Positions 26,548-27,228 of a stretch of DNA of 64,000 nucleotides are shown here, one piece after another. Source of the stretch: Chloroflexota bacterium (GTDB lineage: Bacteria; Chloroflexota; Anaerolineae; Anaerolineales; UBA4823); contig JAJUJL010000005.1 of the NCBI GenBank assembly GCA_029265355.1, positions 104,339-168,338 of the forward strand, written 5' to 3'. The notes beneath the pieces are model-generated. The model was not told the origin of the DNA, ran no database searches, and saw only the letters and a program-made list of their open reading frames with translations. The position numbers were made by a program, and so were the translations under genes. Within the stretch, counting starts at the first letter, position 1, and every line of letters starts with the position of its first letter.

Positions 26548-27228
26548 ATGAGCGAAAAACTGCTCAACGACGATATCGTTCAACAACTCAAAGACGTCTT
26601 CCAACAACTGCAAAATCCGGTAGAAGTGCTGTTTTTTGGGAGCAAGAAGGATTGCGAATATTGCGACGATACCCGGCAACTGGCCGAAGAAGTGGTCGCC
26701 ACATCGGATAAGCTGCACATGCAGGTTTACGATATCGACGAGCACGCCGAGATTGCCCGCCAATACCATGTGGATAAAGTTCCCGGCCTGGTTCTGGCTG
26801 CCCGTGACGGCGACCGCATCATCGACTACGGCGTGCGTTTTGCAGGCATTCCTTCGGGGCATGAATTCAGCTCGCTGGTGCACGACCTGGTGCTAGTTTC
26901 TGGTCGCGACTCGGGCTTGAGCCCACAAACGCGCAGCTTTCTGGCCGATCTGAAAGAACCGGTGCTGCTGCAAGTCTTCGTAACTCCTACCTGACCTTAC
27001 TGCCCGCGAGCCGTGGTGCTCGCTCACCAAATGGCCCTGGAGAGCCCGATGGTTCAGGCCGAGATGGTGGAAGCCATGGAGTTCCAGGAGCTTTCCTATC
27101 GCCACCATGTCAGCGGCGTGCCCCAGACCACGATCAATGACGGCGCTGCGCATGTGGTTGGCGCTGTGCCAGAAGGCAATCTACTGGCAGAAATTATGAA
27201 AGTGGTATCCAAAAAGAAATCTAAATAA
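26548..27228 (+). CDS. candidate selenoprotein: two-thioredoxin-fold protein disulfide oxidoreductase with in-frame TGA (26992-26994) as Sec in UPYC
   Basis: MSEKLLNDDIVQQLKDVF..FFGSKKDCEYCDDTRQL..LQVFVTPT[TGA]PYCPRAVVLAHQMALESPMVQAEMVEAMEFQELSYRHHVSGVPQTTIND..KKKSK*; both halves in one frame; RBS AGAAGGAG. Confidence 0.72.
27006..27023 (+). promoter_or_regulatory. candidate bacterial SECIS hairpin GCGAGC-CGTGGT-GCTCGC
   Basis: Perfect 6-bp stem, 6-nt loop with G at loop position 2 then T; stem begins 11 nt after the TGA. Confidence 0.65.

What the first reader, a model, noticed from the sequence alone, without database searches (positions are those of the whole stretch)
26548..27228. Candidate new selenoprotein: protein disulfide oxidoreductase with in-frame TGA at the first catalytic Cys (UPYC)
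Seen directly: the reading frame from ATG 26548 gives an N-terminal Trx-fold with DCEYC, reaches LQVFVTPT, hits TGA at 26992-26994, and without any frame change continues PYCPRAVVLAHQMALESP...VSGVPQTTIND...KKKSK to TAA at 27226-27228. Established: two-domain PDO/glutaredoxin-like proteins carry a second CPYC after a TPT-like strand, so the TGA sits at the expected first Cys. Redox CxxC to UxxC replacement is the usual hallmark of Trx-fold selenoproteins. Inference: U149 of a 226-residue selenoprotein. The ORF track splits the gene (26467-26994 and 27013-27228), and automatic annotation would do the same.
Basis: partly seen in the sequence, partly recalled or inferred. Interest (0 to 1): 0.92.

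Follow-up and report, generated by a model that had tools for sequence, protein, structure and literature searches.

The report
Selenocysteine form of protein disulfide oxidoreductase
A stop codon in the middle of this bacterial redox gene is almost certainly read as selenocysteine, so the gene encodes one whole two-domain disulfide-handling enzyme; the reading is right, but this enzyme family has been listed as a selenoprotein family for about twenty years.

Summary
Confirmed: the frame from ATG 26548 runs through one TGA (26992-26994) to TAA 27228 and gives a 226-residue, two-domain protein disulfide oxidoreductase (PDO) with CEYC in domain 1 and UPYC in domain 2. The TGA is very probably selenocysteine. 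The same genome has selA, selB, selD (itself with a UxxK TGA) and a UCA-anticodon tRNA-Sec. In 157 homologous loci this codon is TGA (49) or TGC/TGT (108). A SECIS-like hairpin (GCGAGC-CGUGGU-GCUCGC) has its loop 17 nt after the UGA. It is complete in fixed register in 30 of 44 distinct TGA homologs against 4 of 94 Cys homologs, covaries through a silent Leu base, and the association survives a phylogenetic-pairs test. Sec and Cys forms sit in the same conserved redox operon behind an ECF sigma/anti-sigma pair. It is not a new selenoprotein family: NCBIfam TIGR02187 is named 'PDO_seleno_TRX', and the 'homolog of AhpF N-terminal domain' is tabulated in selenoproteome papers of 2006, 2022 and 2026. 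What may merit a note is how often Sec and Cys exchange here within Anaerolineae (at least 9 supported changes, 23 by parsimony). Sec insertion itself was not measured.

The parts
26548..27228 (+). pdo gene, 226-aa selenoprotein form of protein disulfide oxidoreductase (TIGR02187); domain 1 CEYC (res. 36-39), domain 2 UPYC (res. 149-152)
26992..26994 (+). TGA codon read as Sec149
   Evidence: TGA/TGC/TGT only at this codon in 157 homologous loci
27006..27023 (+). SECIS-like hairpin: 6-bp stem 27006-27011/27018-27023, apical loop CGUGGU 27012-27017, loop begins 17 nt after the UGA
   Evidence: fits the published bSECIS constraints
26533..26538 (+). AAGGAG ribosome-binding site, 9 nt before ATG 26548
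   Evidence: sequence inspection
25377..25994 (+). ECF sigma factor, first gene of the conserved cluster
   Evidence: conserved position
25991..26242 (+). zf-HC2 anti-sigma factor with HxxxCxxC; ends in TGA
26294..26500 (+). small CxxC...CxxC (zinc-ribbon-like) protein; ends in TGA
27245..27502 (+). YruB-family glutaredoxin (CSYC)
27520..27891 (+). NifX/dinitrogenase FeMo-cofactor-like protein
27929..28513 (+). ResA/TlpA-like thiol-disulfide oxidoreductase
28515..28991 (+). OsmC-family protein; ends in TGA
28988..29368 (+). rhodanese-domain protein

Best explanation
The gene encodes a two-domain thioredoxin-fold protein disulfide oxidoreductase of the TIGR02187 family in an Anaerolineae (Chloroflexota) bacterium. 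SelB with Sec-tRNA(UCA) decodes UGA 26992 as Sec149, directed by the hairpin just downstream. Sec149-Cys152 is the C-terminal redox pair. Likely action (inferred): Sec149 attacks substrate disulfides, Cys152 resolves the mixed selenide-sulfide, and the pair is re-reduced by an NAD(P)H thioredoxin-reductase-type enzyme, possibly through the Cys36-Cys39 pair. The gene probably belongs to a thiol-stress operon under the adjacent ECF sigma/anti-sigma pair. Shown by computation: frame, homology, machinery, hairpin association, synteny. Inferred: actual Sec insertion, catalysis, regulation.
For: selA 543 bits; selB 309.5 bits, 344 with its C-terminal part; selD 358 bits with its own in-frame TGA at CAG-U-ASK; tRNA-Sec 75 bits with anticodon UCA. 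TIGR02187 277 bits vs 185. Codon is TGA in 49 and TGC/TGT in 108 of 157 loci. 13 of 14 sampled genomes with TGA (this one included) have selB above cut-off; the exception, G004, is 53% complete. Hairpin complete in 30/44 TGA vs 4/94 Cys sequences; a synonymous-codon null expects 0.9-3.3 of 44, at most 9 in 500 draws; CGA/CTC, CAA/CTT, CCA/CTG covariation; independent-pairs test about 8:0, median p 0.008. Purifying pattern after the TGA. Model pLDDT 93.5, TM about 0.9 to solved PDOs. Only one PDO in this genome.
Against: No mass spectrometry or 75Se data. 14 of 44 TGA homologs lack the full fixed-register hairpin; nine of them have another 5-7 bp hairpin at almost the same place, but L111, L167, L170, L172 and L174 fit poorly. 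Hairpin register and test used the same sequences, though two loci missed at first (L085, L157) both fit. The genome is a 64-contig assembly, so linkage of the sel genes to the same organism rests on that assembly (98.5% complete, 2.8% contamination).
Confidence: 0.96

Rival explanations
1. The TGA is a true stop created by recent mutation or sequencing error; the C-terminal half is a pseudogene remnant.
For: The ORF track splits the gene at the TGA; TGA is an ordinary stop for neighbouring genes.
Against: TGA at the same codon in 48 other loci, no other disruption downstream, third-position bias after the TGA, downstream stem covariation.
Confidence: 0.015
2. Non-Sec readthrough or a reassigned TGA codon (e.g. 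Trp, Cys) yields the long protein.
For: The frame is open under any TGA=residue code.
Against: Neighbouring genes end in TGA; homologs replace TGA only by Cys codons; full Sec machinery present; the hairpin goes with TGA and not with Cys homologs.
Confidence: 0.015
3. The two halves act as separate proteins: a truncated domain-1 protein and a restarted C-terminal piece (27013-27228).
For: An ORF can be listed from 27013 (first-stage reader).
Against: Truncation at 148 leaves domain 2 with its first strand only (model strand 139-145, helix 152-165); the restart would lack that strand and the active-site motif; relatives with Cys make one continuous protein.
Confidence: 0.01

Closest known systems
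TIGR02187 / PDO_seleno_TRX; [quoted passage not shown] PMC1794560, PMC13188914)
   Same: Same curated family above cut-off, UxxC motif, one Sec
   Different: New genome and lineage sampling (Anaerolineae); Sec/Cys exchange at this site is frequent here. I could not read the published ABB15282.1 sequence to confirm that its Sec is in the same CxxC.
Thermophile PDOs of known structure (Aquifex 2ayt/2ywm, Pyrococcus 1a8l, 1j08, Aeropyrum 2hls)
   Same: Two thioredoxin-fold units, CxYC in unit 1, TPTCPYCP in unit 2, about 35% identity, TM about 0.9
   Different: Pyrococcus PDOs have Cys at the position of Sec149
AhpF N-terminal domain
   Same: Same double-Trx fold (TM 0.73-0.83)
   Different: No flavoprotein part; AhpF models far below cut-off
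Published bacterial SECIS (bSECIS) model
   Same: 6-bp stem, 6-nt loop with G at position 2 followed by U, 17-nt spacing
   Different: Not tested with bSECISearch itself

Membership tests
TIGR02187 protein disulfide oxidoreductase (PDO_seleno_TRX) | Score above curated cut-off over the full model | tested here: met
   277 bits vs 185, model 2-208 of 209; all 12 alignment members match
TIGR02187 protein disulfide oxidoreductase (PDO_seleno_TRX) | Two Trx-fold units each with a CxxC-type site | tested here: met
TIGR02187 protein disulfide oxidoreductase (PDO_seleno_TRX) | Disulfide reductase/oxidase activity | not testable with these tools
   needs an enzyme assay
Selenoprotein | In-frame UGA at a position occupied by Cys in homologs | tested here: met
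   49 TGA, 108 TGC/TGT
Selenoprotein | Sec machinery in the genome (selA, selB, selD, tRNA-Sec) | tested here: met
Selenoprotein | SECIS element just downstream of UGA | tested here: met
   Meets published bSECIS constraints: loop 6 nt, stem 6 bp, G in first two loop positions, spacing 17, -9.1 kcal/mol for the hairpin
Selenoprotein | Selenium present in the protein | not testable with these tools
   needs 75Se labelling or MS
AhpF (TIGR03140) | Full-length flavoprotein disulfide reductase | tested here: not met
   87.6 bits vs 502.9 cut-off; N-terminal part only

The most novel reading that the evidence does not exclude
In Anaerolineae this PDO site switches between Sec and Cys unusually often, with SECIS hairpins repeatedly lost or gained inside a conserved redox-stress operon run by an ECF sigma/anti-sigma pair, making it a natural series for studying how Sec is gained and lost. 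Direction (gain or loss) was not determined.
Probability: 0.5. Interest if true: 0.45.

Novelty: new member of a known kind. Interest (0 to 1): 0.3.

Why it matters
It corrects an annotation: automatic gene calling splits this gene and loses the catalytic domain. It extends a known selenoprotein family through the Anaerolineae and gives a matched set of close Sec and Cys homologs in the same operon, useful for testing what selenium adds and how SECIS elements evolve inside coding sequence.

Tried and rejected
A scan of the window for other TGA codons next to Cys in open frames gave a list that looked like chance; no second selenoprotein gene was recognised there by eye. Neighbouring cluster genes were checked for TGA at Cys positions in relatives: only one case (Grx of L125). 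Sigma-70 promoter scan gave no more than shuffles. Single-sequence MFE folds of 48 nt did not show the hairpin in every case, the window's own included, where a competing fold of the 48-mer wins; the fixed-register and codon-null tests were used instead.

Full report
OBSERVATION. From ATG 26548 the frame passes one TGA at 26992-26994 and ends at TAA 27226-27228; translated with TGA=U it gives MSEKLL...LQVFVTPT-U-PYCPRAVV...KKKSK. A good ribosome-binding site (AAGGAG, 26533-26538) precedes ATG 26548. The listed ORF from GTG 26467 to 26994 is an artefact of stopping at the TGA and starting too early.

WHAT THE PROTEIN IS. The 226-residue product scores 277 bits against NCBIfam TIGR02187, 'PDO_seleno_TRX, protein disulfide oxidoreductase' (cut-off 185). 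In the PDB its nearest sequences are PDOs of Pyrococcus and Aquifex (E down to 4e-41); the Pyrococcus TPTCPYCP aligns with TPT-U-PYCP. An AlphaFold2 model has pLDDT 93.5 and matches those structures with TM about 0.9. Truncation at residue 148 would leave domain 2 with only its first strand. The genome holds no second copy.

IS THE TGA SELENOCYSTEINE? Machinery: tRNA-Sec (75 bits; ARAGORN anticodon UCA), selB, selA and selD are all in the same assembly. The selD gene has its own in-frame TGA in CAG-U-ASK, the UxxK site known for Sec-type SelD (table in PMC13188914). Codon: in 155 loci picked by a pattern that allowed Cys, Sec or Ser at the site there were 47 TGA, 75 TGC and 33 TGT; of three missed loci two are TGA and one is unresolved. 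Some loci are the same genome seen in two collections, so the counts are of loci, not organisms. selB: of the 14 sampled genomes (this one included) with TGA in the close set, 13 have selB above cut-off and the other is 53% complete. TGA also ends ordinary neighbours (sigma factor, anti-sigma, small zinc-ribbon gene, OsmC), so it is not reassigned genome-wide.

SECIS. [quoted passage not shown] The window has GCGAGC[CGUGGU]GCUCGC with the loop starting 17 nt after the UGA (-9.1 kcal/mol for the 18-mer). In this fixed register all six pairs form in 30 of 44 distinct TGA sequences and 4 of 94 Cys sequences (Fisher p 1.6e-15, not corrected for kinship). Keeping the protein and drawing synonymous codons gives on average 0.9 to 3.3 complete stems of 44 and never more than 9 in 500 draws, depending on the codon pool; Cys homologs (4 of 94) lie within their own null range (mean 1.4, maximum 6). 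The third pair changes on both sides: CGA..CTC, CAA..CTT, CCA..CTG, where the Leu third base is silent for the protein. With kinship considered, about 8 of 9 independent Sec/Cys pairs on supported branches go with the stem and none against in most pairings (median sign-test p 0.008). Nine of the 14 TGA homologs without the full fixed stem have another 5-7 bp hairpin with a GU/GG-type loop at almost the same place; L111, L167, L170, L172 and L174 fit poorly.

SURROUNDINGS. In many Anaerolineae relatives the order is ECF sigma, zf-HC2 anti-sigma, small CxxC protein, PDO, then variously YruB glutaredoxin, NifX-like, ResA/TlpA and OsmC, whether the PDO carries Sec or Cys. The anti-sigma has an HxxxCxxC motif, as in redox-sensing zinc anti-sigma factors (established for RsrA from general knowledge; its role here is inference). 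A thiol-stress operon is the simplest reading. A PDO in Saccharolobus takes electrons from thioredoxin reductase and passes them to peroxiredoxin (PMC7278568), which is the model for the mechanism proposed.

EVOLUTION. A tree of 140 homologs needs at least 23 Sec/Cys changes, 9 of them forced by well-supported branches, against 38 for shuffled labels. It is a quick, unrooted tree, so gain and loss cannot be told apart.

COMPARISON WITH WHAT IS KNOWN. This selenoprotein family is published: 'homolog of AhpF amino-terminal domain' in Carboxydothermus and Symbiobacterium (PMC1794560) and TIGR02187, UxxC, in PMC9312934 and PMC13188914. The finding is therefore a correct call of a selenoprotein gene, and a new member of a known kind. 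I found no paper on this family in Chloroflexota in the held library, which is a limited search.

Noticed in passing
L176 (own genome, C31:236905-237837, minus strand): selD is itself a selenoprotein gene: in-frame TGA in CAG-U-ASK.
   Followed up: yes
L125 7012-7230: A YruB-type glutaredoxin about 1 kb downstream of a Cys-form PDO has TGA at its first active-site Cys (TPT-U-PYC), so Sec appears in the neighbour instead of the PDO.
   Followed up: partly
25377-29368: Conserved cluster ECF sigma / zf-HC2 anti-sigma / zinc-ribbon / PDO / Grx / NifX-like / ResA / OsmC in many Anaerolineae; a candidate thiol-stress regulon.
   Followed up: partly
L109 6001-6621: Tepidibacillus decaturensis (Bacillota) carries a TGA form of the same protein with a shifted hairpin.
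   Followed up: partly
26294-26500: Small 68-aa protein with two CxxC pairs, no clear Pfam family, conserved before the PDO gene.
   Followed up: partly
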